Source of the DNA: Mycobacterium simiae
Lineage (GTDB): Bacteria > Actinomycetota > Actinomycetes > Mycobacteriales > Mycobacteriaceae
Length of the DNA stretch: 64,000 nt
Assembly: GCF_010727605.1 (NCBI RefSeq)
Contig: NZ_AP022568.1
Location: 62,001-126,000 of the forward strand
Direction of reading: 5' to 3'
Both the position numbers and the translations under genes were made by a program. The notes beneath the pieces were generated by a model that saw nothing but the letters and a program-made list of their open reading frames with translations, searched no databases and was not told where the DNA came from. Shown here piece by piece: positions 14,717 to 30,462 of this stretch (position 1 is the first letter of the stretch; each line of letters opens with the position of its first letter).

Positions 14717-15223
14717 ATCCACCCACCCAAGCACGAGACGTTCGACCTGCTCGCCCGCACCAACACCGACCCCAAGGGCATCGTGCGGGCGGTCGACGAG
14801 TATGCCGTGCGCCCGTGGGGGCTCTACGTCGCGCGCCCCACACCCGGCCGAGCCCAATTCCACTACCTCGAATCGTGGCTGCTGCCGTCATTGGGCCTGC
14901 GCGCCACGGTGTTCCAATTCAATCCTGGCCACGAGCGCGACCACGACTACTACCTCGACGTCGGTGAATACCGTCCCGGCCCGGAGGCGTGGACGTCGGA
15001 GGACCACTACCTCGACATCGAAGTGCGCACCGGCACCGGGGCGAACCTGGCCGACGTCGACGAGCTGCTGGATGCAGTGCGGCTCGGCCTGCTCACCCCC
15101 AAGGCGGCCGAGCAGGCGATCCGGCGCGCCGTCCACGCGCTCGAAGGACTCGCCAGCAACGACTATGACTTACATCGCTGGTTGGCCGGTGACGGCATCG
15201 AGCTCAGCTGGCGCGGCCGGTGA
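14717..15223 (+). CDS. DUF402 family protein, probable non-standard ATC start
   Basis: The 146-residue segment from GTG 14783 is clear DUF402 (AVDEYAVRPWGLYVARP, YLESWLLPSLGLRATVFQF, DYYLDVGEY, DHYLDIEV). Members of this fold include nucleoside phosphatase-like and tRNA-associated proteins; function here is unknown. Similarity to the family seems to begin earlier, at IHPPKHETFDLLARTNTDPKG, which is open from a TAA at 14705 but offers no ATG, GTG or TTG. The codon where relatives start is ATC at 14717, with an AAGGTGA ribosome-like site just upstream. Either ATC (or CTG 14747) is used, or the protein is shortened to GTG 14783. Its stop overlaps a GTG in frame with the next gene (GTGA), suggesting coupling. 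Confidence 0.65.
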   Translation: MHPPKHETFDLLARTNTDPKGIVRAVDEYAVRPWGLYVARPTPGRAQFHYLESWLLPSLGLRATVFQFNPGHERDHDYYLDVGEYRPGPEAWTSEDHYLDIEVRTGTGANLADVDELLDAVRLGLLTPKAAEQAIRRAVHALEGLASNDYDLHRWLAGDGIELSWRGR

Positions 15224-15273: not shown

Positions 15274-15849
15274 ATGCCGTTGAGCGAATACCGGCGCAAA
15301 CGCCGTTCCGGCAAAAGCCCCGAACCAGCAGGGCGGCTCGGGCGCAGCCGCCGCGGCACATCGACCGCGCCGTGTTTCGTTATCCAGCACCACGCCGCCC
15401 GCAGCGATCATTACGACTTCCGCCTCGAGATCAACGGCGTGCTCGCCTCGTGGGCGGTTCCCCGAGGACCGTCGACCAACCCGAAGGACCGGCGGATGGC
15501 GCGCCGTACCGAGGACCACCCGCTGGCCTACGCCGGATTCGAAGGAGTCATTCCCGATGGCGAGTACGGAGCGGGCCCGGTGATCGTTTGGGACCGCGGC
15601 ACCTACGTCAACACGACCCAGCACGATATGCACGAATGCCTGCGCCGCGGCCATCTCTCGTTCCAGTTACAGGGCGCCAAGTTGCAGGGCGGTTTTACCC
15701 TCACCCGGATTCGCGAGGGTAAGGACGAGACCTGGCTGCTGATCAAACGCAAGGACCAGGACGCCGACGCCCGGCGCAAACCCGTCAAGAGTCAACCCAA
15801 ATCAGTGCTGACCGGTCGCACGCTGGACGACCTGACCGCCCGGTCATGA
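15274..15849 (+). CDS. Free-standing LigD-type 3'-phosphoesterase (PE domain)
   Basis: A 191-residue protein that is only the PE module of LigD, which removes 3'-phosphates and 3'-ribonucleosides from DNA ends before ligation. The module begins with the typical LSEYRRKR...KSPEPAG and carries the metal/catalytic residues in HHAARSDHYDFRLE (His40, His46, Asp48), then EDHPLAYAGFEG and IPDGEYGAG. ATG 15274 is chosen because the family starts at this point. The alternative GTG 15220 overlaps the previous stop as GTGA and would add 18 unlike residues. Its stop overlaps the ligase start as ATGA. In most mycobacteria this domain is fused within LigD. Confidence 0.9.
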   Translation: MPLSEYRRKRRSGKSPEPAGRLGRSRRGTSTAPCFVIQHHAARSDHYDFRLEINGVLASWAVPRGPSTNPKDRRMARRTEDHPLAYAGFEGVIPDGEYGAGPVIVWDRGTYVNTTQHDMHECLRRGHLSFQLQGAKLQGGFTLTRIREGKDETWLLIKRKDQDADARRKPVKSQPKSVLTGRTLDDLTARS

Positions 15850-16856
15850 CCGATCTCGCCGGCCTGCCCGACCCGGTGCGCGCCGCATTGCGCGCCGAGC
15901 GGGTACCGAAGTGGCGGGCACCGACGCTGGCCACACTGACCGAGCAGCGGTTCAGCGACCCGAACTGGATTTTCGAGCGCAAGTTCGACGGCATGCGTTG
16001 CCTGGCGTTCCGCGACGGCGATCAGACACACCTGTTGTCGCGAAATCACCAGCCGCTCAACGGAACCTATCCGGAGCTGATGGAGGCACTCGCCGCCCAG
16101 CGCACCACCCGCTTCGTGGTCGACGGTGAGGTCGTGGCGTTTCAGGGACGCCGTACCAGCTTCGCCCGACTGCAGGGCCGGCTGGGCATCACGGATCCGG
16201 CGGTGGCCCGGGCGTCGCATATCCCGGTTTACTACTACCTTTTCGACCTGCTGCACCTCGACGGCGAAGACACGACCGCGCTGCCATTGCGGTGGCGCAA
16301 GCGACTGCTGCGCGCGGCAATCAGCTTCGACGATCCGTTGCGTAACACCGCCCATCGCGTCGGAGACGGCCTCGCGGCGTACCAGGCCGCGTGCAAGCGC
16401 GGAGACGAAGGAGTGATCGCCAAGTTGGCCGACTCCCGCTACGACGGCGGCCGGTCGAAAAATTGGCTGAAGTTCAAATGCGTGCGCGATCAGGAATTCG
16501 TCGTCGGGGGTTTCACCAGCCCGAAGGGCAGCCGAATCGAGTTGGGCGCGTTGCTGATCGGCTACTACGCCGGTCCCGCGAACAACCGCAACCTGGTCTA
16601 CGCCGGCAAGGTCGGCACCGGTTTCGACGAGGCCGCACTGCGCGACCTGCACGAGCGGCTTTCCCCCCTCGAGCAGGAGACACCACCATTTGGCCGGGGA
16701 CTGTTGCGGGAGAACGGCGCTAATTGGGTGCGGCCGGAACTGGTGGTGCAGATCGGGTTTACCGAGTGGACCCGCGACGGTAAGCTCCGCCATCCGCGCT
16801 ACCAGGGTCTGCGAACCGATAAGGATCCCACCGAGGTGATACGGGAGACACACTGA
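15846..16856 (+). CDS. ATP-dependent DNA ligase (LigD ligase module / LigC-like)
   Basis: A 336-residue ATP-dependent ligase with nucleotidyltransferase and OB-fold domains only. The adenylated lysine motif I is ERKFDGMR (Lys46); motif III-like YYYLFDLLHLDG, motif IV EGVIAKL and motif V NWLKFK are all in order. The OB part contains AGKVGTGFDE. It seals nicks with ATP, unlike the NAD-dependent LigA. Its length and domain set match LigD's ligase module or stand-alone LigC. Both junctions overlap: ATGA with the phosphoesterase and TGATG with the polymerase. Confidence 0.93.
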   Translation: MTDLAGLPDPVRAALRAERVPKWRAPTLATLTEQRFSDPNWIFERKFDGMRCLAFRDGDQTHLLSRNHQPLNGTYPELMEALAAQRTTRFVVDGEVVAFQGRRTSFARLQGRLGITDPAVARASHIPVYYYLFDLLHLDGEDTTALPLRWRKRLLRAAISFDDPLRNTAHRVGDGLAAYQAACKRGDEGVIAKLADSRYDGGRSKNWLKFKCVRDQEFVVGGFTSPKGSRIELGALLIGYYAGPANNRNLVYAGKVGTGFDEAALRDLHERLSPLEQETPPFGRGLLRENGANWVRPELVVQIGFTEWTRDGKLRHPRYQGLRTDKDPTEVIRETH

Positions 16857-17746
16857 TGGCACGCGTCGAGGTTGACATCACCCACCCGGATCGCGTCCTG
16901 TTCCCGAAGGACGGCATCACCAAGCAACACCTGGCCGACTATTACGGCGAGGTGGCCGAGACTATGCTGCCGCATCTGCGGGGCCGCGCGCTGACCGTAC
17001 AACGATTCCCACGCGGTATCGGCGAAAAAGGGTTTGTCCAACAGGATTTCGCCGACACACTGCCGGACTGGATGAACGGGATCAGGGTCGACAAGGAGGG
17101 CGGCACCCTGGTCCATCCGCTGGCCGAACGCCCCCAAGCCCTGCGTTGGCTGGCTAACCAGAGCTGCATCACCTTGCATGTGTGGCAGTCGCGGCAAAAC
17201 CGGCTGCACCATCCCGACCGCTTGGTGTTCGATTTCGACCCATCCGGTGACGATTTCGCGGTGGTGCGGGCAGCGGCCCGCGCCGCGGCCGACGTACTCG
17301 ACGAGCTGGGGCTGGCCCGCTACCTGCAGACCACGGGGTCACGTGGACTGCATGTGGTGGTGCCGGTGCGCCCCGAGATCGACTTCGACACCGTGCGCCA
17401 ATTCGCCCGCGACGTCGCCGAAGTCGTCGCCGCCGACGACCCCGCGCATCGAACGGTAGAGGCCCGCAAGGAAAACCGCGGCGACCGCGTCTACCTCGAC
17501 ATCATGCGCAACGCCTACGCGCAGACCGCGGTCGCGCCGTACTCGGTGCGGGCCCGCGACGGCGCGCCGGTAGCCACCCCGCTGGAATGGGACGAACTGG
17601 ACACCCGCGGTCTGCGCGCCGATCGGTTCACCATCCGCGACGTTCCCAGACGGTTGGCCGGCCAAGGCGATCCGTGGGCCGACATGTACCGGCACGCCCG
17701 CTCGCTGACCGGTCCGCTCGAGCGGCTGGCGAAGCTTCATGCCTGA
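16856..17746 (+). CDS. Primase-polymerase (LigD POL module / Prim-PolC-like)
   Basis: A 296-residue archaeo-eukaryotic primase superfamily protein equal to the LigD polymerase domain, which fills gaps and prefers ribonucleotides. The metal-binding carboxylates are in FDFDPSGDD (Asp126, Asp128). The conserved TTGSRGLHVVVP segment and the third-carboxylate region DRVYLDIMRNAYAQTAVAPYSVR follow. The start overlaps the ligase stop by one base (TGATG). Mycobacterial free-standing Prim-PolC acts with LigC in excision-repair gap filling, so the pairing here with a ligase and a glycosylase fits such a role; that is inference. Confidence 0.93.
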   Translation: MARVEVDITHPDRVLFPKDGITKQHLADYYGEVAETMLPHLRGRALTVQRFPRGIGEKGFVQQDFADTLPDWMNGIRVDKEGGTLVHPLAERPQALRWLANQSCITLHVWQSRQNRLHHPDRLVFDFDPSGDDFAVVRAAARAAADVLDELGLARYLQTTGSRGLHVVVPVRPEIDFDTVRQFARDVAEVVAADDPAHRTVEARKENRGDRVYLDIMRNAYAQTAVAPYSVRARDGAPVATPLEWDELDTRGLRADRFTIRDVPRRLAGQGDPWADMYRHARSLTGPLERLAKLHA

Positions 17747-18524
17747 GCTGCCCGACGTCGAGGGGTTCCGGCGCGAGCTGGCCAAAACCTTGCCCCGCCG
17801 CAAGATCGCGCACGTGCGGGTCGAAGACCCCGGGATTCTGCGCAACATCTCCGCCACCGCGCTCGGTCGCCGCCTCGCCGGGCACCATTTCACGACACCA
17901 CGCCGACACGGCAAATGGTTGATTCTGCCCACTGACGGCCCGACGCTGCTGGTCCACAGCGGCATGACCGGACATCCGTTCTACGCCCATGCCGGTGCCG
18001 AACCGGAAAAGTATGAGCGGCTGGTGGTTTCCCTCGACAGGGGCGAACTGCGCTACGCCGATCTTCGGAAACTGCGCGGGGTGTGGCTGGCCGACGACGA
18101 GGACGACCTTGCGAACGTGCTGGGTCCGCAGGGGCCCGACGCGTTGGGTATGGGACTGCGGGAATTTCGCAAGGTCCTCACCGGGCGGCGCCGTCAGACC
18201 GGCCGGCTGAAGCCGACGCTGATGGACCAGTCGGTGATCGCCGGCCTCGGCAATCTGCTCACCGACGAAATCTGCTGGCGGGCCAGGCTCCGGCCGACTC
18301 ATCTGGTGGCCGACCTAAACGCCGACAACGTGAAGCGGCTGCATACCGCGATGACTCAGGTGCTGCGCACTTCGGTGCGGCACGGCCGCGTGCCCGGCCT
18401 GCCCCGATGGCTGACCCGGGTACGCGACGACCCCGACCCGAGTTGCCCACGCTGCGGAACGCGGCTGCGCCATGACCGGGTGGGCGGTCGGACGTCGTTG
18501 TGGTGCCCGCACTGCCAGCATTGA
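17739..18524 (+). CDS. Fpg/Nei family DNA glycosylase-AP lyase
   Basis: A 261-residue bifunctional glycosylase that removes oxidised bases and cuts the abasic site. The N-terminal catalytic Pro2-Glu3 is in MPELPDVEGF (Asp where Fpg often has Glu). The beta-clamp lysine is in RRHGKWL (Lys59), and the H2TH motif is in MDQSVIAGLGNLLTDEI. A C-terminal zinc finger has CPRCG and CPHCQ. It cannot be assigned as Fpg or Nei by sequence alone. It overlaps the polymerase gene by 8 bp, so it is the last member of the overlapping repair cassette. It faces coaE with only 8 bp between stops. Confidence 0.92.
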   Translation: MPELPDVEGFRRELAKTLPRRKIAHVRVEDPGILRNISATALGRRLAGHHFTTPRRHGKWLILPTDGPTLLVHSGMTGHPFYAHAGAEPEKYERLVVSLDRGELRYADLRKLRGVWLADDEDDLANVLGPQGPDALGMGLREFRKVLTGRRRQTGRLKPTLMDQSVIAGLGNLLTDEICWRARLRPTHLVADLNADNVKRLHTAMTQVLRTSVRHGRVPGLPRWLTRVRDDPDPSCPRCGTRLRHDRVGGRTSLWCPHCQH

Positions 18525-18532
18525 CCGCGTCG

Positions 18533-19747
18533 TTAGGGCCGCCAGCCGGTAAAGTCCGCCCATTCCCATGCGCGGTGGTAAGCCCCGGCCAGCCAGGGGT
18601 CCTTCGCCTCGACATAGCTGGCCGCGTCGCCGCCGGCTTGCTGTTCGGCCGCCTTCTTGGCGGCCAGGTAGTCGACCCGTTCCTGCGGGTTGGCGGCCAG
18701 CCAGTCCACGAACAGCAACCCGAACTGCTGGTTGGGCCAGCCGTCCACCCGGATGTGTACATTCGTCGGACGGCCGGGATCGGCGGAGCCGTGAATTCGC
18801 TTGCGCCACAAGGCAGTATCGTCGTTATGGTCATACTCGCTCAGGGTGCTGCGGGCCTCGGCGTGCACGTCATCCTGCTCGATGTGTTCCAGGCGCGGGT
18901 AGCCAGCCGTCAGCAACGCGTCGCCGAGTTCGTCGGCGGCGGTGAGTGATTCGACGGTGATCTGGACGTCGATGACGTCCTTGGCGTCGAATTCCGGCAC
19001 CGCGGTCGATCCAATGTGGTCGACGCGCAACGCTTTATGGCCACACGCCGTGGACAGCCGGGCGACGATACGCCGGGCCTGGTCCGGCCAGGTCGGATCG
19101 GCCGCCACCACGCGGATCGGAGCGCGGGCGGTTCGACGCTCGGACAGATTGTGCGCAAACGGCACGATCCGGTCGTTCCACACTTCGCGGGCGCGCTTGA
19201 CCAGATCCTCCTGACCGCCCGAGTTGTCCATCCAGATATCGGCGACGGCACGCCGCTGATCGTCGTCGGCCTGGGCGGCGATCCTGGCCCGGGCGTCTTC
19301 CTCGGGCATGCCGCGCAGCTCGACCAGCCGCCGCACCCGCTCTTCGACGTCGGCGTACACGATGATCACCAGTGGGAACAGCGGCGCCATACCGGACTCC
19401 ACCAACAGCGGAATGTCCTCGACCACCACCGCATCGTCGGGCACCGACGCGATGATTTCCGCGCGCCGCCGAGCCACCAGCGGATGGATGATCCCGTTCA
19501 GCTTCTGGCGTGCCTCGTCATTGGGAAAGGCTCTGGCGGCCAACGCAGGACGATCCAGCGATCCGTCGGGCAGCAGGATGTCCGCGCCGAAGGCCTCGAC
19601 GAGCGACGCCAACCCCTCGGTGCCCGGTTGGACAACCTCGCGGGCAATAACGTCGCCGTCGACGATGACCCCACCGCATTCCGCGAACGTGGCCGACAAC
19701 GCCGACTTGCCGGCGCCGATGCCGCCGGTCAACCCGATGCGCAGCAT
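18533..19747 (-). CDS. coaE: Dephospho-CoA kinase fused to a GrpB/UPF0157 domain
   Basis: CoaE phosphorylates dephospho-CoA in the last step of coenzyme A synthesis. The N-terminal 200 residues are a P-loop kinase: Walker A GGIGAGKS at 8-15, substrate-site DGDVIAREVV and HPLVARRR. The C-terminal 200 residues form a GrpB/UPF0157 domain of the nucleotidyltransferase fold (DHIGSTAVPEFDAKDVIDVQI). This two-domain layout and length (404) match the mycobacterial form; bacterial CoaE alone is about 200. The C-terminal domain has been thought to help folding or regulation. It starts 12 bp after rpsA on the same strand, so the two are probably co-transcribed. Confidence 0.95.
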   Translation of the reverse strand: MLRIGLTGGIGAGKSALSATFAECGGVIVDGDVIAREVVQPGTEGLASLVEAFGADILLPDGSLDRPALAARAFPNDEARQKLNGIIHPLVARRRAEIIASVPDDAVVVEDIPLLVESGMAPLFPLVIIVYADVEERVRRLVELRGMPEEDARARIAAQADDDQRRAVADIWMDNSGGQEDLVKRAREVWNDRIVPFAHNLSERRTARAPIRVVAADPTWPDQARRIVARLSTACGHKALRVDHIGSTAVPEFDAKDVIDVQITVESLTAADELGDALLTAGYPRLEHIEQDDVHAEARSTLSEYDHNDDTALWRKRIHGSADPGRPTNVHIRVDGWPNQQFGLLFVDWLAANPQERVDYLAAKKAAEQQAGGDAASYVEAKDPWLAGAYHRAWEWADFTGWRP

Positions 19748-19759
19748 CCCTGACCGACG

Positions 19760-21205
19760 TTAGGCGTTGCCGGCGAGCTTTTCCCGCAGCGCGGCCAGCT
19801 GTGCGTCGCTGGCCAGCGAACCGCCTGCCGCCTTCTCCGCGGGCGCGCCGTTGCCCGGCGCGTGCTCGCTGTCGACGTGTCCGGCCGCTTCGGCCGCGGC
19901 GAACTTCTCCATCTGCGCGGTGTGCATCTTGTGCCGGCGCTCGGCCTCGGCGTAGCGGGCTTCCCACTCCTGGCGCTGAGCGTCGAAGCCTTCCATCCAC
20001 TCGTTGGTTTCGGCGTCGAAGCCCTCGGGGAAGATGTAGTTGCCCTGGTCGTCGTAGCTGTCGGCCATGCCGTACTTCGCCGGGTCGAACTCTTCGGTGT
20101 AGTCCTCGTTGGCCTGCTTGAGCGACAACGAGATTCGGCGGCGTTCCAGGTCGATGTCGATGACCTTGACCATCGCGTCGTCGCCGACGGCAACCACCTG
20201 GTCGGGCACCTCGACGTGACGCTCGGCGAGCTCGGAGATGTGCACCAGGCCCTCGATGCCCTCCTCGACGCGGACGAACGCGCCGAACGGCACCAGCTTG
20301 GTGACCTTGCCCGGCACGATCTGACCGATCGCGTGGGTGCGGGCGAAGTGACGCCACGGGTCTTCCTGAGTTGCCTTGAGCGACAACGAAACCCGCTCGC
20401 GGTCCATGTCCACGTCGAGCACCTCGACAGTGACCTCGTCGCCCACCTGAACCACCTCGGACGGGTGGTCAATGTGCTTCCAGGACAGCTCGGAGACGTG
20501 CACCAGACCGTCCACCCCGCCCAGGTCGACGAACGCGCCGAAGTTGACGATGGAGGAAACCACACCCTTGCGGATGGTGCCCTTCTGCAGCTGGTTGAGG
20601 AACTCGCTGCGCACCTCGGACTGGGTCTGCTCGAGCCAGGCACGGCGGGACAGCACCACGTTGTTGCGGTTCTTGTCCAGCTCGATGATCTTGGCCTCGA
20701 TCTCCTTGCCGATGTAGGGCTGCAGATCGCGGACCCGGCGCATCTCGACCAGTGAGGCGGGCAGGAAGCCGCGCAGTCCGATGTCGAGGATCAGGCCGCC
20801 CTTGACGACCTCAATGACGGTGCCCTTGACGGCCTCGTCCTTCTCCTTGAGGGCCTCGATGGTGCCCCAGGCGCGCTCGTACTGCGCACGCTTCTTGGAC
20901 AGGATCAGGCGGCCTTCTTTGTCCTCCTTGGTGAGAACGAGGGCCTCGACCTCATCGCCGACGGAAACGACCTCGTTGGGGTCGACATCGTGCTTGATGG
21001 AGAGTTCGCGGGCGGGGATGACCCCTTCGGTCTTGTAGCCGATATCGAGGAGCACCTCGTCCCGGTCCACTTTGACGATCGTGCCCTCGACGATGTCGCC
21101 ATCGTTGAAGTACTTGATCGTTTTGTCGATTGCTGCGAGAAAGTCCTCGCTGGAGCCAATGTCGTTGACGGCTACTTGGGGCGAGGTGACGGTGGGACTC
21201 GGCAT
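19760..21205 (-). CDS. rpsA: 30S ribosomal protein S1
   Basis: A 481-residue S1 protein, the same length as in M. tuberculosis. Four S1 (OB-fold) RNA-binding domains follow each other: GDIVEGTIVKVDRDEVLLDIGYK, then KGTVIEVVKGGLILDIG, KGVVSSIVNFGAFVDLGG and PGKVTKLVPFGAFVRVEEG. The C-terminal tail (from about 430) is less conserved and rich in Glu and Ala; in M. tuberculosis this tail was proposed to bear on pyrazinoic acid binding and trans-translation. The start ATG 21205 (MPSPTVTSPQVAVNDIG) is fixed by near-identity to the mycobacterial N-terminus. The cotranscribed coaE follows. Confidence 0.97.
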   Translation of the reverse strand: MPSPTVTSPQVAVNDIGSSEDFLAAIDKTIKYFNDGDIVEGTIVKVDRDEVLLDIGYKTEGVIPARELSIKHDVDPNEVVSVGDEVEALVLTKEDKEGRLILSKKRAQYERAWGTIEALKEKDEAVKGTVIEVVKGGLILDIGLRGFLPASLVEMRRVRDLQPYIGKEIEAKIIELDKNRNNVVLSRRAWLEQTQSEVRSEFLNQLQKGTIRKGVVSSIVNFGAFVDLGGVDGLVHVSELSWKHIDHPSEVVQVGDEVTVEVLDVDMDRERVSLSLKATQEDPWRHFARTHAIGQIVPGKVTKLVPFGAFVRVEEGIEGLVHISELAERHVEVPDQVVAVGDDAMVKVIDIDLERRRISLSLKQANEDYTEEFDPAKYGMADSYDDQGNYIFPEGFDAETNEWMEGFDAQRQEWEARYAEAERRHKMHTAQMEKFAAAEAAGHVDSEHAPGNGAPAEKAAGGSLASDAQLAALREKLAGNA

Positions 21206-21371
21206 ATTGTTGGGGTGCTCCGGACAGGTTGGGTCGTAGGGACAAATCAGGGATTTACGTGTTGAGGCTACTCGACTCGGCACACGCTGGCCAAACTTGG
21301 GCTCTCATAACCGCTGCATATCTGACGCGCACGTTACGTCTGGGCGAATTGCGGGCGTGTCGTGCCGCCGG

Positions 21372-21832: not shown

Positions 21833-24562
21833 CTAGTGCGCGGCGGCGTCCCAGGAGCGCCCGTAGCCGACGGACACCTCCAGCGGTACGTCCAGCGGGT
21901 AGGCGCCCCCCATCTTCTCGCGGGCCAGCGCCTCGACCTGCTCGCGTTCGCCGGGCGCGATTTCGAACAGCAATTCGTCGTGGACCTGCAACAACATGCG
22001 CGATTTGAGTCCGGCCTCGTTGATCGCCTTGTCCACCTCGATCATGGCCACCTTGATGATGTCGGCGGCGCTGCCCTGGATGGGCGCGTTCAGCGCGGCG
22101 CGCTCGGCGGCTTCGCGGACGTTGCGGTTACTGCTGTCGAGCTCGGGCAGGTAGCGCCGGCGCCCGAAGACCGTGGACGTATAGCCGTCCTTGCGGGCCT
22201 GCTCAACGACATCGCGCAGGTAGTCGCGGATCCCGCCGAATCGGGCGAAGTACAGGTCCATCTGCTCTTTGGCTTCTTCGGTGGAGATCTTGAGCTGCGC
22301 GGACAGCCCGTAGGCGCTCAACCCGTAGGCCAGTCCATACGACATCGCCTTGACCCGGCGGCGCAGTTCGGCGGTGACCTCTTGGATCGGCACCCCGAAC
22401 GCCCGGGAGGCCACGAACGAATGCAGGTCTTCGCCGGTGTTGAAGGCCTCGATCAGGCCCTCGTCCTTGGACAGGTGCGCCATGATCCGCATCTCGATCT
22501 GGCTGTAGTCGGCGGTCATCAGCTCCGCATACCCGTCGCCGACCACGAATGCGTCGCGGATGCGGCGGCCGGCCTCGGTGCGAATCGGAATGTTCTGCAG
22601 ATTCGGCTCGGTCGACGACAATCTGCCTGTCGCCGCGATGGTCTGGTTGAACGTGGTGTGGATGCGCCCATCGGAGGCCACCGCGTTCAGCAACCCGTCC
22701 ACGGTGACCTTGAGCCGAGTGGCATCGCGGTGCGCGAGCAGATGCTGCAGGAACGGGTGACCGGTCTTGTCGAACAGCGACTGCAGGGCATCCGCGTCGG
22801 TGGTGTAGCCGGTCTTGGTGCGCTTGGTTTTCGGCATGCCCAGCTCGTCGAACAGCACCGTCTGCAACTGTTTCGGCGAGCCTAGGTTGATCTGCTTGCC
22901 GATCACCTCATACGCGGCCTCCGCCGCGTCGCGAATCTGGTGGGCGAAATCGCTTTGCAGCTCGCTCAGTCGCTCCATGTCCACCGCGATACCGGTGTGC
23001 TCCATGCCGGCCAGCACCCGCTGCACCGGCAATTCCATACCGGCCAACAGCGAGGTGGAGTCGATCCGCGCCAGTTCCTCGTCGAGTGCGTCGGCGAGAT
23101 CCAGCACCGCGACCGCCCGCAGAATCAACGTCTGCACCGCCTGATCGTCGACGCCCTCGGAATCGTCGAGTAGCGAAAGCTGTTGCTGCTCAGGTGTTTC
23201 AGCGCGCAATTCGCGGCGCAAGTAGCGCAGCGACAAATCGTCGAGGGCGAAGCTGCGCTGGCCTGGACGCACCAAGTAGGCGGCCAGCGCGGTGTCGGAG
23301 GTGACGCCGTTCAGCGTCCAGCCCCGCCCGGCCAGATCGTGCATCGCCAGCTTGGCTTCGTGCAGCGCCTTGGGCGGACCCGGGTCGGCCAACCAGGACG
23401 CCAGCGCCGCCTCGTCGTCGGGGCCCAGCGTCGCGGTGTCGAGGTAGCGGCCGTCGCCGTCGGCGGAGACAATGGCCAGCGCGGTGGCGTCGGCATCGTA
23501 GGCCAGGTGGGTGCCGACGACGGCCAGGCCGAACCGCTTGCCCGAGCTGTGCTCGGCCAGCCAGACGGCCAGCTCGCCGGGTTCCAGCGCGCCACCCCGC
23601 ACGTCGAATCCCTCGTCGACCTCGGGCTCGACAGCGGCCAGGGTCTCGAACAGCCGGTCGCGCAGCACCCGGAACTCCAGGTCGTCGAAGAGGCGGTGAA
23701 TCTGGTCGCGATCCCACGGCAGCAGCCGCAGCGTGTCCGGGGTTTGGGCCATCGGTACGTCCTTGACGAGTTCGGTGAGCTCCCGGTTGCGGATGACGTT
23801 GGCCAGGTGCGCCCGCAGCGCGTCGCCCACCTTGCCGCGCACGGTGTCGGCGTTGTCGACCAGCCCCTGCAGCGATCCGTATTCGATGATCCACTTCGAC
23901 GCGGTCTTCTCCCCGACGCCGGGGATGCCGGGCAGGTTGTCGCTGGGGTCGCCCCGCAGCGCGGCGAAGTCGGGGTATTGCGCGGGGGTCAACCCGTACT
24001 TCTCGACCACCGCCTCCGGGGTGAACCGGGTGAGTTCGCTGACTCCCTTACGCGGATACAGCACCGTGACGTCGTCGCTGACCAACTGCAGCGCGTCGCG
24101 GTCACCGGTGACCACCAGCACCCGGTAGCCCTCGTACTCGGCCTGGGTCGCCAGCGTCGCAATCAGGTCGTCAGCTTCGAACCCGGGCTCGGCCAACACC
24201 GTGATGCCCAGCGCGGCAAGCACTTCCTTGGTGATGTCGATCTGGCCGCGGAACTCGTCGGGGGTTTCCGACCGGCCGGCCTTGTACTCCGGGTACCGCT
24301 CGAGCCGGAACGTCTGGCGGGACACGTCGAATGCCGCGGCAACGTGTGTCGGCGTCTCGTCGCGCAACAGGTTGATCAGCATGGCGGTGAAGCCGTACAC
24401 CGCGTTGGTGGTCAGCCCGCCGCGGGTCTTGAAGTTCTCCGCGGGCAGCGCATAGAACGCGCGGAAGGCCAGCGAATTGCCGTCCAGCAACATCAGTGTC
24501 GGCTTGGTCTGTTGCTCGCTGGGAATGAGGGTCGCGGCAGGCACGGCTCTCACTCTAGGCAT
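21833..24562 (-). CDS. polA: DNA polymerase I
   Basis: A 909-residue family A polymerase (904 in M. tuberculosis). The N-terminal 5'-nuclease domain has LMLLDGNSLAFRAFYAL, EADDLIATL, GDRDALQLV and the helix-hairpin-helix GIPGVGEKTASKWI. The middle 3'-5' exonuclease-like domain lacks the catalytic acidic residues, as in other mycobacteria. The polymerase domain shows motif A TADYSQIEMRIMAHLS, motif B RRRVKAMSYGLAYGLSAYGL and motif C LLQVHDELLFE. It fills gaps in excision repair and removes Okazaki primers. ATG 24562 is used, without a clear ribosome site. It is divergent from the DUF35 gene. Confidence 0.97.
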   Translation of the reverse strand: MPRVRAVPAATLIPSEQQTKPTLMLLDGNSLAFRAFYALPAENFKTRGGLTTNAVYGFTAMLINLLRDETPTHVAAAFDVSRQTFRLERYPEYKAGRSETPDEFRGQIDITKEVLAALGITVLAEPGFEADDLIATLATQAEYEGYRVLVVTGDRDALQLVSDDVTVLYPRKGVSELTRFTPEAVVEKYGLTPAQYPDFAALRGDPSDNLPGIPGVGEKTASKWIIEYGSLQGLVDNADTVRGKVGDALRAHLANVIRNRELTELVKDVPMAQTPDTLRLLPWDRDQIHRLFDDLEFRVLRDRLFETLAAVEPEVDEGFDVRGGALEPGELAVWLAEHSSGKRFGLAVVGTHLAYDADATALAIVSADGDGRYLDTATLGPDDEAALASWLADPGPPKALHEAKLAMHDLAGRGWTLNGVTSDTALAAYLVRPGQRSFALDDLSLRYLRRELRAETPEQQQLSLLDDSEGVDDQAVQTLILRAVAVLDLADALDEELARIDSTSLLAGMELPVQRVLAGMEHTGIAVDMERLSELQSDFAHQIRDAAEAAYEVIGKQINLGSPKQLQTVLFDELGMPKTKRTKTGYTTDADALQSLFDKTGHPFLQHLLAHRDATRLKVTVDGLLNAVASDGRIHTTFNQTIAATGRLSSTEPNLQNIPIRTEAGRRIRDAFVVGDGYAELMTADYSQIEMRIMAHLSKDEGLIEAFNTGEDLHSFVASRAFGVPIQEVTAELRRRVKAMSYGLAYGLSAYGLSAQLKISTEEAKEQMDLYFARFGGIRDYLRDVVEQARKDGYTSTVFGRRRYLPELDSSNRNVREAAERAALNAPIQGSAADIIKVAMIEVDKAINEAGLKSRMLLQVHDELLFEIAPGEREQVEALAREKMGGAYPLDVPLEVSVGYGRSWDAAAH

Positions 24563-27302: not shown

Positions 27303-27379
27303 GCCCTCGTATCCCAACTGGCAGAGGAAACGGATTCAAAACCCGTCCAGTGTGAGTTCGAATCTCACCGAGGGCACCA
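27303..27379 (+). tRNA. tRNA with CAA anticodon (tRNA-Leu), encoded CCA end
   Basis: The acceptor stem GCCCTCG (27303-27309) pairs with CGAGGGC (27369-27375), followed by ACCA. The T arm is GTGAG-TTCGAAT-CTCAC. The anticodon arm is ACGGA-TTCAAAA-CCCGT, giving anticodon CAA, with an A-C mismatch at the loop-closing pair. The variable loop is only about 5 nt (CCAGT), so this is a class I shape, whereas leucine tRNAs normally have a long variable arm. I recall a similar short CAA tRNA (leuX) in M. tuberculosis. Confidence 0.88.
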
Positions 27380-28674: not shown

Positions 28675-29121
28675 GTGAACTCCTTGTATTGCAAATACGC
28701 GTTGCGTGGTTGACCTCAGCGCCGGCCGTTCACTCGCCCCGCCTCGGGTCGCTGAGGGACTATCTGCCTCACCTAACCACCGCTATGTCGACTGTGTCTT
28801 GGGTTTGCAGACAGTGCCGTCCTCGACGGCGGTCCCGGTTGCTGTGTGGGTAACCGATGCTTCCCCGACGGGCCTGCATCGCCCTCCAGGTCACCCCGCT
28901 GACGGAATCATCTGTCGGACAATGCATTCGCCTGGATGCGCCGGTTGCGTTTGCAGGTGCGTCAATAAAACGCTAGAGCCTCCGCGGTGATCCGCGAGAA
29001 TCCTTGGCGGACAACGTCGTTGGTTCGGACGCAACCGATACTGCGCCGATCGGGGCTCCCCGCAGCGCGGCAGCGAACCGCCACGCTGGGTATACGCCCA
29101 TTTTGCGGTTACGCTTTGACC
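28675..29121. other. Intergenic region between the MpaB-family gene and adenylate cyclase
   Basis: A 447-bp divergent spacer. The frames that remain open across it have no ribosome site or family likeness. A short hairpin (CGCGG, TGAT, CCGCG) lies at 28983-28996. No promoter could be assigned with confidence; presumably those of both neighbours lie here. Confidence 0.5.
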
Positions 29122-30462
29122 GTGGCGGCTAAGAAATGCGGTGCCCCACCGAGTCGGCCGGACGGGTCGACGCGCCCGGACTGTAAAGCGGCGGTGCGGG
29201 CCGAGACCCGCGCCCGCAGCCAGCACTACGCCGACAGCAATGCCCGACGGGTGCGGGTGCTCAACATCAACGCCCTAATGGGCGTACTGGTGTGTTTCGT
29301 CTTCGCCATCCTCGGTTTCTGGTCGGGACCGGCGGCCTACACCATCCAGATCGTCAACGTCTGCACCGGCGTGATTTTCGCCTGCGTCCCATGGCTCAAG
29401 CGTTTCGGGGAATTGGTTGCGCCACTTACGTTTATCTTCACCGCCTACGCCGCGGTCGTCGTGACCTGCTGGCATGTGGGTACCGGCGGCGGGGTGCAGT
29501 ACTACCTGGTGACCACCGCCAGCCTGGTGGTGTTGCAGCTCGGCATTGAACGGATCGGCCTTGCGGCATTACTGGCCACCCTCGGTGCCGCGCTCGTCAT
29601 CACACTGCAGTTCCTTGTCCCCCGCTCCACCGGATTGGAACCGCCGTGGGCGATGACGATGAGCTTCGTGATCACCACCCTGTCGGCGTGCGCGATGGTG
29701 GTCGTGACCGTGTGGTACGCCATGCGCGACACCCAACGCGCCGAGGCCGGGATGGAAGCCGAGTACGAGCGCTCGGAGGCATTGTTGGCCAACATGTTGC
29801 CGGCCAGCGTCGCCGAACGACTCAAAGAACCAGAGCGCAATGTCATCGCTGACCGATACGACGAAGCCTCGGTTCTGTTCGCCGACATGGTCGGCTTCAC
29901 CGAGCGCGCCAGCACCACCGCGCCGTGCGACCTGGTCAAGTTCCTGGACCGGCTCTACAGCGCGTTCGACGAGCTGGTCGACCGGCACGGCCTGGAGAAA
30001 ATCAAGGTCAGCGGCGACTCGTACATGGTGGTCAGCGGAGTCCCGCGACCAAGGCCCGACCACGTACAGGCCCTGGCGGACTTCGCCCTCGACATGGTCG
30101 CGACGGCGGCCGAACTCAAGGACCCGCATGGCCTGTCGGTGCCATTGCGGATCGGCTTTGCGACCGGCCCGGTGGTGGCGGGCGTCGTGGGCTCGCGGCG
30201 CTTTTTCTACGACGTGTGGGGCGACGCCGTCAATGTCGCGGCTCGGATGGAGTCGACGGACTCCGTGGGACAGATCCAAGTCCCCGAGGATGTCTACGAG
30301 CGCCTGAAGGGCGAATTCGTGCTGCAGGAGCGCGGCCGCATTGAGGTCAAAGGCAAAGGCCTGATGCGGACCTGGTACCTCATCGGCCGGCGGCCGGCGC
30401 CTCGCGACGAGAGCGACCTGGCGATCGAGACACCGCGCACAACGCACGGCGCCACGGTCTAA
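29122..30462 (+). CDS. cya: Class III membrane adenylate cyclase (Rv1625c/Cya-like)
   Basis: A 446-residue cyclase (443 in M. tuberculosis), forming cAMP from ATP. Six membrane helices span residues 45-215, then a signalling helix (AEAGMEAEYERSEALLANMLP) leads to the catalytic domain. Residues are intact: metal-binding Asp255 (FADMVGFTE) and Asp299 (SGDSYM), ATP-selecting Lys295 and Asp364 (YDVWGD), and transition-state Asn371 and Arg375. One chain carries all of these, so it functions as a homodimer. GTG 29122 gives the same N-terminus as M. tuberculosis (VAAKKCGAPP). The 42-bp gap to the DUF308 gene suggests co-transcription. Confidence 0.95.
   Translation: MAAKKCGAPPSRPDGSTRPDCKAAVRAETRARSQHYADSNARRVRVLNINALMGVLVCFVFAILGFWSGPAAYTIQIVNVCTGVIFACVPWLKRFGELVAPLTFIFTAYAAVVVTCWHVGTGGGVQYYLVTTASLVVLQLGIERIGLAALLATLGAALVITLQFLVPRSTGLEPPWAMTMSFVITTLSACAMVVVTVWYAMRDTQRAEAGMEAEYERSEALLANMLPASVAERLKEPERNVIADRYDEASVLFADMVGFTERASTTAPCDLVKFLDRLYSAFDELVDRHGLEKIKVSGDSYMVVSGVPRPRPDHVQALADFALDMVATAAELKDPHGLSVPLRIGFATGPVVAGVVGSRRFFYDVWGDAVNVAARMESTDSVGQIQVPEDVYERLKGEFVLQERGRIEVKGKGLMRTWYLIGRRPAPRDESDLAIETPRTTHGATV

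What the first reader, a model, noticed from the sequence alone, without database searches (positions are those of the whole stretch)
15274..18524. Split-LigD plus Fpg/Nei cassette: PE, ligase, polymerase and glycosylase as four overlapping genes
The three modules that make up LigD in NHEJ are separate proteins here, in the order PE-LIG-POL. They are tied by stop/start overlaps (ATGA, TGATG) to a fourth gene for an oxidised-base glycosylase-AP lyase (8-bp overlap). No Ku gene is nearby. Together they supply base removal, strand cutting, 3'-end cleaning, gap filling and sealing, so the cassette could be a self-contained base-excision repair unit in place of end joining. Each active site is visibly intact. 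The seen facts are the domains and overlaps; the pathway is inference, supported by known LigC/Prim-PolC involvement in mycobacterial excision repair.
Basis: partly seen in the sequence, partly recalled or inferred. Interest (0 to 1): 0.72.

Follow-up and report, generated by a model that had tools for sequence, protein, structure and literature searches.

The report
Split-LigD operon with Fpg-type glycosylase
Some mycobacteria carry an operon that encodes the three parts of an end-joining repair enzyme as separate proteins together with a damaged-base-removing enzyme; a core form of the operon has been reported before, and it looks like an optional extra repair kit rather than a replacement for end joining.

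Summary
In detail: PE, LIG, POL and an Fpg-type glycosylase lie in order at 15274-18524, overlapping by 4, 1 and 8 bases; the overlaps recur in 27 of 30, 45 of 53 and 44 of 47 junctions. The core is not new: a 2017 paper reports LigC, Prim-PolC and FPG co-transcribed near polA in M. avium, M. intracellulare and JS623 (PMC5663958). Added here: (1) LIG and POL are not LigC and Prim-PolC, which M. sherrisii carries elsewhere; they belong to an actinobacterial split-LigD clade, and POL lacks Prim-PolC's Loop 3. (2) The Fpg is not MutM and lacks its capping loop, so Fapy or hydantoin lesions are likelier targets than 8-oxoG. (3) "In place of end joining" fails for relatives: Ku in 38 of 38 genomes, a long LigD frame in 35 of 38; the window's own genome is not held. 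(4) The set is loose: 8 of 79 related loci keep all four genes with an intact PE site, and genes stay constrained without their partners. Best reading: an auxiliary, optional excision-repair module.

The parts
14783..15223 (+). DUF402 gene, immediately upstream of the cassette; where PE is missing it precedes LIG, with a 4-base overlap in four loci
   Evidence: Pfam PF04167; spacing (L007, L014, L018, L106)
15274..15849 (+). PE: stand-alone LigD-type 3'-phosphoesterase, six catalytic positions filled
   Evidence: TIGR02777 over cut-off; nearest solved structures 2lj6, 3n9b, 5dmp; residues
15846..15849 (+). ATGA overlap of PE stop and LIG start
   Evidence: sequence; gap -4 in 27 of 30 junctions
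15846..16856 (+). LIG: split LigD-type ATP-dependent DNA ligase
   Evidence: TIGR02779 282.9 bits over 227.75; LigC model PRK08224 144.2 under 296; nearest solved 1vs0; tree
16856..16856 (+). one-base stop/start overlap (TGATG) of LIG and POL
   Evidence: sequence; gap -1 in 45 of 53 junctions
16856..17746 (+). POL: stand-alone NHEJ-type primase-polymerase without Prim-PolC Loop 3
   Evidence: TIGR02778 over cut-off; nearest solved 5dmu 278 bits against 168 for 5op0 and 154 for 2iru; tree; C-terminus
17739..17746 (+). 8-base overlap of POL end and FPG start
   Evidence: sequence; gap -8 in 44 of 47 junctions
17739..18524 (+). FPG: Fpg/Nei-superfamily glycosylase/AP lyase, a paralogue distinct from MutM, Fpg2 and Nei
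   Evidence: Pfam; MutM equivalogs under cut-off, 154.7 against 203.3 and 160.6 against 212; tree; fold model pLDDT 93.2, nearest 3c58
18378..18410 (+). place (residues 214-224) where MutM's capping loop is missing from FPG
   Evidence: alignment to four MutM paralogues
18533..19747 (-). coaE, convergent conserved neighbour; rpsA (19760-21283) and polA (21833-24562) follow on the same strand
   Evidence: synteny; DUF402 and coaE both seen in 73 of 79 loci

Best explanation
An auxiliary, optional short-patch excision-repair module built from a split LigD. Inferred steps: Fpg removes an oxidised purine (Fapy or hydantoin type more likely than 8-oxoG) and cuts by beta,delta-elimination, leaving a one-base gap with 3'- and 5'-phosphates. 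PE, where catalytically intact, clears the 3'-phosphate; endonuclease IV can do this elsewhere. POL docks on the 5'-phosphate and fills the gap, probably with a ribonucleotide. LIG seals. Shown here: the domains, intact sites, conserved overlaps, family placement, patchy distribution and purifying selection. The pathway, the substrate and any complex are inferred. In relatives it exists beside Ku and LigD, not instead of them, and its parts can function apart.
For: Overlaps that imply co-translation, kept in 27/30, 45/53 and 44/47 junctions. In 396 genus genomes POL and this Fpg co-occur in 43, POL only 13 (10 stand-alone POLs counted as no POL), Fpg only 20, neither 320, Fisher 1.5e-30; with the stand-alone POLs counted 43/23/20/310, 1.6e-25 (not corrected for shared ancestry). 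In a phylum sample of 296, Fpg at E<=1e-56 in 12, POL in 34, both in 6, p 0.0008 (threshold chosen afterwards; at the search's own 1e-38, 8 of 19 have both). dN/dS mostly 0.06-0.30 for LIG, POL and FPG. PMC5663958: LigC1 binds FPG, FPG with EndoIV, Prim-PolC and LigC repairs lesions in vitro, and FPG shares an operon with a ligase and Prim-Pol (passages; Discussion). LigD ligase domain has 5'-dRP lyase activity (PMC4770248 passages). Plant Fpg with a short capping loop removes Fapy, Gh and Sp but little 8-oxoG (PMC10573277 passage).
Against: The genes come apart often: 20 of 63 Fpg-positive genus genomes lack POL by the threshold used and 13 of 56 POL-positive ones lack Fpg. PE is altered in 18, broken in 1 and absent in 47 of 79 loci. 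POL lacks Loop 3, the feature tied to gap repair in Prim-PolC. Sister POLs lie within about 5 kb of Ku in three other genomes (L233, L234, L236). In G060 a LIG-POL pair and the Fpg lie on different contigs; in G746 and G788 the two genes are 3 and 1 Mb apart. No expression or biochemical data for these proteins were found.
Confidence: 0.5

Rival explanations
1. Accessory end-joining kit: PE, LIG and POL are spare or specialised NHEJ enzymes recruited by the genome's Ku, and Fpg is co-expressed to clean oxidised bases near broken ends or in clustered damage.
For: Ku in 38 of 38 genomes. PE-LIG-POL is the split form of a Ku partner, and the archaeal equivalent is operonic and acts in NHEJ (PMC4797286 passages). 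POL's nearest solved relative is the M. paludicola NHEJ polymerase. POL lacks the gap-specific Loop 3. POLs of the same clade sit within about 5 kb of Ku in L233, L234 and L236.
Against: No Ku match in any of the 81 census loci (window included) nor in PE-LIG-POL loci L226, L232, L235, L237, L238 and L257 (stretches of 4.6-21 kb in the census). Each genome checked already has a Ku and nearly all a long LigD frame.
Confidence: 0.3
2. Co-located but functionally separate genes: Fpg is the old resident between DUF402 and coaE, PE-LIG-POL was inserted beside it, and tight overlaps reflect operon compaction, not one pathway.
For: Fpg alone in 12 of 79 loci, some of them near the base of the Fpg tree. 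PE-LIG-POL without Fpg in other actinobacteria. Genes stay constrained without their partners. Fpg intact/not changes 13 times on the LIG+POL tree.
Against: Fpg overlaps POL by exactly 8 bases in 44 of 47 junctions. The co-occurrence excess persists in the phylum sample, and in G902 PE-LIG-POL lies 3.8 kb from the same Fpg type.
Confidence: 0.2

Closest known systems
LigC/Prim-PolC/FPG operon and BER complex of mycobacteria (Plocinski et al. 2017, PMC5663958; Introduction, Discussion and passages seen)
   Same: A ligase, a primase-polymerase and an Fpg in one operon near polA; proposed role in excision repair. The M. avium and M. intracellulare operons named there are very probably this locus (inference; their supplementary figure was not seen).
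   Different: The genes here are not orthologues of M. smegmatis LigC1 and Prim-PolC, the Fpg is not MutM, and a PE gene is added. The passages seen name no PE in the operon.
Operonic split PE/POL/LIG of archaeal NHEJ (Methanocella paludicola, PMC4797286; passages seen)
   Same: Three separate enzymes in one operon; among solved structures POL is closest to this polymerase
   Different: Fpg added; no Ku beside it; actinobacterial clade
Mycobacterial fused LigD (Rv0938 type)
   Same: Same three activities; the LigD-domain cut-offs of all three are met
   Different: Separate proteins, order PE-LIG-POL, own clades in the trees; coexists with the fused LigD
Streptomyces kuA-polK and ligC-polR loci (PMC5124664; passages seen)
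   Same: Split NHEJ-like genes in actinobacteria
   Different: No PE-LIG-POL-Fpg operon in the passages seen
Plant Fpg (AtMMH-1) with short capping loop (PMC10573277; passage seen)
   Same: Capping loop short or missing
   Different: Different lineage; activity of this Fpg unknown

Membership tests
LigC | NCBIfam equivalog PRK08224 over cut-off (296 bits); that this model is LigC is recalled | tested here: not met
   window LIG 144.2 bits; the ligase beside Prim-PolC in M. sherrisii 584.3
LigC | inside the LigC clade | tested here: not met
   LIGC group separate at 100*, cassette LIG in the split clade at 99* (quick tree with long-branch warnings)
Prim-PolC | C-terminal Loop 3 extension (aa 294-336 in PMC5663958) | tested here: not met
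   absent in 7 of 7 cassette POLs aligned, present in 4 of 4 Prim-PolC; L140 Prim-PolC matches 6sa0 at 643 bits, cassette POL at 168
split LigD (PE, LIG, POL domains) | each domain over its NCBIfam LigD-domain cut-off | tested here: met
   TIGR02777, TIGR02779 and TIGR02778 all over cut-off
split LigD as NHEJ system | Ku linked to the genes | tested here: not met
   no Ku in the window or in any of 81 census loci
split LigD as NHEJ system | Ku present in the genome | tested here: met
   38 of 38 genomes behind related loci; the window's own genome not testable
split LigD as NHEJ system | Ku-dependent activity | not testable with these tools
   needs biochemistry
MutM (orthologous Fpg) | MutM equivalogs TIGR00577 (203.3) and PRK01103 (212) over cut-off | tested here: not met
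   154.7 and 160.6; M. sherrisii MutM 332.4 and 328
MutM (orthologous Fpg) | 8-oxoG capping loop | tested here: not met
   absent in all 12 cassette rows aligned, present in 4 of 4 MutM
Fpg/Nei H2TH superfamily | N-terminal Pro-Glu, H2TH, zinc finger, fold | tested here: met
   Pfam, invariant P2, E3, K59 and four Cys, fold match
LigD 3'-phosphoesterase | six catalytic residues (H42, H48, D50, R52, H84, Y88 in P. aeruginosa numbering) | tested here: met
   all six in the window; in 79 other loci kept in 13, altered in 18, broken in 1, PE absent in 47

The most novel reading that the evidence does not exclude
A dedicated, translationally coupled four-enzyme ribonucleotide-inserting excision-repair operon for Fapy and hydantoin lesions, assembled from a split LigD and a capping-loop-less Fpg, in which PE has repeatedly become a catalytically dead barrel that is kept as a structural partner or as the translation leader of LIG.
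Probability: 0.17. Interest if true: 0.65.

Novelty: new variant of a known kind. Interest (0 to 1): 0.42.

Why it matters
It points to a further set of ATP-dependent ligase plus primase-polymerase in a good part of the genus Mycobacterium, distinct from LigD and from LigC/Prim-PolC, and tied to a non-MutM glycosylase. It suggests that the operon cited in 2017 as support for LigC's role in excision repair holds paralogues, so that argument by gene neighbourhood needs revisiting. It also offers a natural experiment: related species with and without PE, LIG, POL or Fpg.

Tried and rejected
Own genome: not held, so Ku and LigD in the window's strain could not be tested; relatives were used. Plasmid search with Fpg found 63 records, all under 60% identity: no close plasmid copy in that collection. 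The promoter scan found none, and one terminator-like site on the other strand, fewer than in shuffles: uninformative. Considered and rejected: orthology to LigC/Prim-PolC; orthology to MutM or Fpg2; replacement of NHEJ in relatives. Passages of PMC10140301, PMC11022373 and PMC8068969 and PMC7719229 gave nothing on the cassette. The pseudo-PE model was built with intact PEs in its alignment, so its PE-like fold is weak evidence. dN/dS is pairwise Nei-Gojobori on few pairs; DUF402 is also high (0.56-0.69) in three of the low-dS pairs where PE looks relaxed. The Fpg pair L023/L026, one of them broken, gives 0.42. Trees are 'quick' trees with SH-aLRT only and carry long-branch warnings.

Rows dropped before counts: the census covers 81 loci (window, L001-L033, L036, L099-L123, L136, L204-L223); the 79-locus counts leave out the window and the Nocardia locus L032. 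Not in it: L034, L035, L037, L038, the stand-alone POL loci L124-L135, L137, L138, and the Fpg fragment of G121, which was not fetched. L122 and L223 are one genome, G060. 'Intact' means 85% of the model in one frame; at 95% the LIG+POL+FPG core falls from 38 to 36. In the genus counts two POL fragments (G251, G315) count as no POL and a few Fpg fragments (such as G285, G121) count as Fpg; the genome searches scored at most 6-9 candidates per genome. Most loci were found by POL, so POL's constancy is partly by construction; the Fpg search was made to counter this. The two phylum samples of 296 genomes are taken to be the same set.
Full report
OBSERVATION. Four genes lie head to tail at 15274-18524: PE, LIG, POL and FPG. 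Pfam and NCBIfam name them clearly. The overlaps are 4, 1 and 8 bases. No Ku match exists in the 64-kb window. Active-site residues are in place: the six PE positions (residues listed for M. paludicola PE in PMC4797286), and P2, E3, K59 and the zinc cysteines of FPG.

WHERE IT OCCURS. A scan of genome contigs with POL gave 38 loci, 33 of them titled Mycobacterium; the nearest is M. sherrisii with 90-92% identity for the four proteins. DUF402 on one side and coaE on the other are both seen in 73 of 79 further loci, with rpsA and polA beyond coaE in most of those whose stretch reaches that far. In 396 genomes of the genus, POL at 62% identity or more occurs in 66; the next full-length value is 49%, and two genomes have 72-75% fragments. 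Ten of the 66 are stand-alone POLs with no PE, LIG or FPG match in the fetched stretch (L124-L133). The cassette-type Fpg occurs in 63 of 396 at E of 1e-45 or better, a few as fragments. Both occur in 43, Fpg without POL in 20, POL without Fpg in 13 (stand-alone POLs counted as no POL), Fisher p 1.5e-30. Shared ancestry inflates this. In a phylum sample of 296 genomes, 12 have this Fpg at E of 1e-56 or better, 34 have POL at 1e-62, and 6 have both, p 0.0008; the Fpg threshold was chosen afterwards, and at the search's own 1e-38 it is 8 of 19. One of the six is the Mycobacterium-like G020, and in G746 and G788 the two genes are about 3 and 1 Mb apart.

CONSERVED COUPLING. PE-LIG overlap by 4 in 27 of 30 junctions, LIG-POL by 1 in 45 of 53, POL-FPG by 8 in 44 of 47 (window and L032 included, starts chosen by alignment). 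Where PE is missing, DUF402 overlaps LIG by 4 in four of 22 loci; the others have other spacings. This implies co-translation; transcripts were not examined.

NOT LIGC AND PRIM-POLC. M. sherrisii (G033) carries a fused LigD (frame of 754 aa with POL, PE and LIG), a ligase beside Prim-PolC, and a lone PolD2-like gene besides the cassette. That ligase scores 584 on the equivalog PRK08224 with a cut-off of 296; the window's LIG scores 144. That Prim-PolC matches solved Prim-PolC 6sa0 at 643 bits; the window's POL reaches 168, and 278 with the M. paludicola NHEJ polymerase 5dmu. In the POL tree the cassette joins stand-alone actinobacterial POLs (99*), apart from fused LigD (100*) and from Prim-PolC plus PolD2 (99*). 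In the LIG tree LigC (100*), fused LigD (98*) and the split LIGs (99*) are separate; the Nocardia LIG of L032 falls among the cassette LIGs. The cassette POL ends before the Loop 3 that PMC5663958 ties to gap repair. The names PolD2 and LigC for PRK08224 are recalled.

NOT MUTM. The Fpg misses the MutM equivalog cut-offs (154.7 against 203.3; 160.6 against 212), while M. sherrisii MutM passes at 332 and 328. In the tree cassette Fpg and solo Fpg of the same locus form one clade (98*), apart from MutM (100*), Fpg2 (99*) and Nei (97*). It has no capping loop and a Leu in place of the Phe of MutM's DQRTF motif (its role as a wedge is recalled). The model is confident (pLDDT 93.2) and matches Fpg structures. 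A review states that plant Fpg with a short loop removes Fapy, guanidinohydantoin and spiroiminodihydantoin well but 8-oxoG poorly (PMC10573277, passage). The substrate proposal is by analogy.

KU AND LIGD. Ku is present in 38 of 38 genomes behind the loci. A frame of 754 aa or more with both PE and POL is present in 35 of 38; the exceptions are G011 (393-aa frame near a contig end), G035 (544 aa) and G038 (no PE). LIG was seen in the same frame in all six checked. So the cassette does not stand in for end joining in these species. The window's own genome is not held.

A LOOSE SET. Of 79 other loci, 38 keep LIG, POL and FPG whole by an 85% rule (36 by a 95% rule): 8 with catalytic PE, 12 with altered PE, 18 (16) without PE. 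Twelve keep Fpg alone, four LIG and Fpg; the rest are other partial or broken states. L008 (M. genavense) and L136 (G251) have several broken genes; assembly error cannot be excluded in drafts. On a LIG+POL tree the state PE catalytic/not changes 7 times (6 forced by starred branches), and Fpg intact/not 13 times; such counts do not tell gain from loss. In pairs where one or both members lost Fpg, LIG and POL keep dN/dS 0.06-0.25; in five pairs without LIG and POL, Fpg keeps 0.17-0.26. The genes are therefore useful apart.

A DEAD PE THAT STAYS. In about 14 loci related to M. interjectum and to strain UM_CSW, PE stays an open frame that overlaps LIG by 4 bases in most, yet has several of the six residues replaced and in most a core stretch deleted. 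PMC4797286 calls the six strictly conserved across the species it compared (passage). Pairwise dN/dS is 0.11-0.41 in the first group and 0.38-0.84 in the second: constrained in part, relaxed in part. A model keeps the barrel (pLDDT 84.6, nearest 3n9b), but its alignment held intact PEs. Either it is a partner, or the frame is kept because LIG translation depends on it, or it is decaying.

WIDER FAMILY. PE-LIG-POL in this order, without Ku or Fpg in the fetched stretch, is present in L232, L235, L237, L238 and L257. G902 has PE-LIG-POL with the same Fpg type 3.8 kb away, separated by a transporter, a protease and an unnamed frame. L227 has LIG-POL only. POLs of the same clade lie within about 5 kb of Ku in L233, L234 and L236. 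No census locus holds Ku (0 of 81).

PRIOR WORK. PMC5663958 (Introduction, Discussion and passages seen) reports LigC and Prim-PolC co-transcribed with FPG in M. avium, M. intracellulare and JS623, near polA and uvrB, LigC1 binding to FPG, and in vitro repair with EndoIV as end cleaner. M. colombiense and M. arosiense, relatives of M. avium by recall, have LIG-POL-FPG without PE at this locus, so that operon is very probably this one, holding paralogues of LigC and Prim-PolC. Its supplement was not available. Literature searches listed no paper whose title or shown abstract describes a PE-containing form or a dead PE; two searches showed only 10 of 38 and 8 of 9 rows, and only the papers named in this report were opened.

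MECHANISM. Most likely (0.5): an auxiliary short-patch excision-repair module, with PE doing the 3'-phosphate step that EndoIV did in the 2017 reconstitution. Rivals: an accessory NHEJ kit (0.3) and mere co-location (0.2). Nothing here shows enzyme activity.

VERDICT. A real, conserved, optional operon; the core idea is in print; the family reassignment, the loop-less Fpg and the repeated loss of PE are additions. Interest 0.42.

Noticed in passing
L124-L133 (ten unnamed genus genomes): A stand-alone orthologue of the cassette POL (62-67% identity) with no PE, LIG or FPG match in the fetched stretch; dN/dS 0.16-0.19 in three pairs.
   Followed up: partly
L020-L024, L026, L027, L029 and L009-L013, L017: PE frames still open but with catalytic residues replaced and, in most, a core stretch deleted: a possible pseudo-phosphoesterase.
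   Followed up: partly
G033 contig C19, about 110-128 kb: An Fpg2-type gene lies about 10 kb from the fused LigD and about 17 kb from Ku, a second Fpg-LigD neighbourhood in the same genome.
   Followed up: no
L122 and L223 (genome G060): Two traces of the cassette in one genome: LIG-POL on one contig; PE, a broken POL and Fpg at the usual locus.
   Followed up: no
window 14783-15223: The DUF402 gene next to the cassette is present in 76 of 79 further loci and resembles FomD only far below its cut-off; its role is unknown.
   Followed up: no
window 28987-30459: A MASE7 domain fused to a guanylate/adenylate cyclase domain.
   Followed up: no
window 27303-27379: The only tRNA found in the window: tRNA-Leu (caa).
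   Followed up: no
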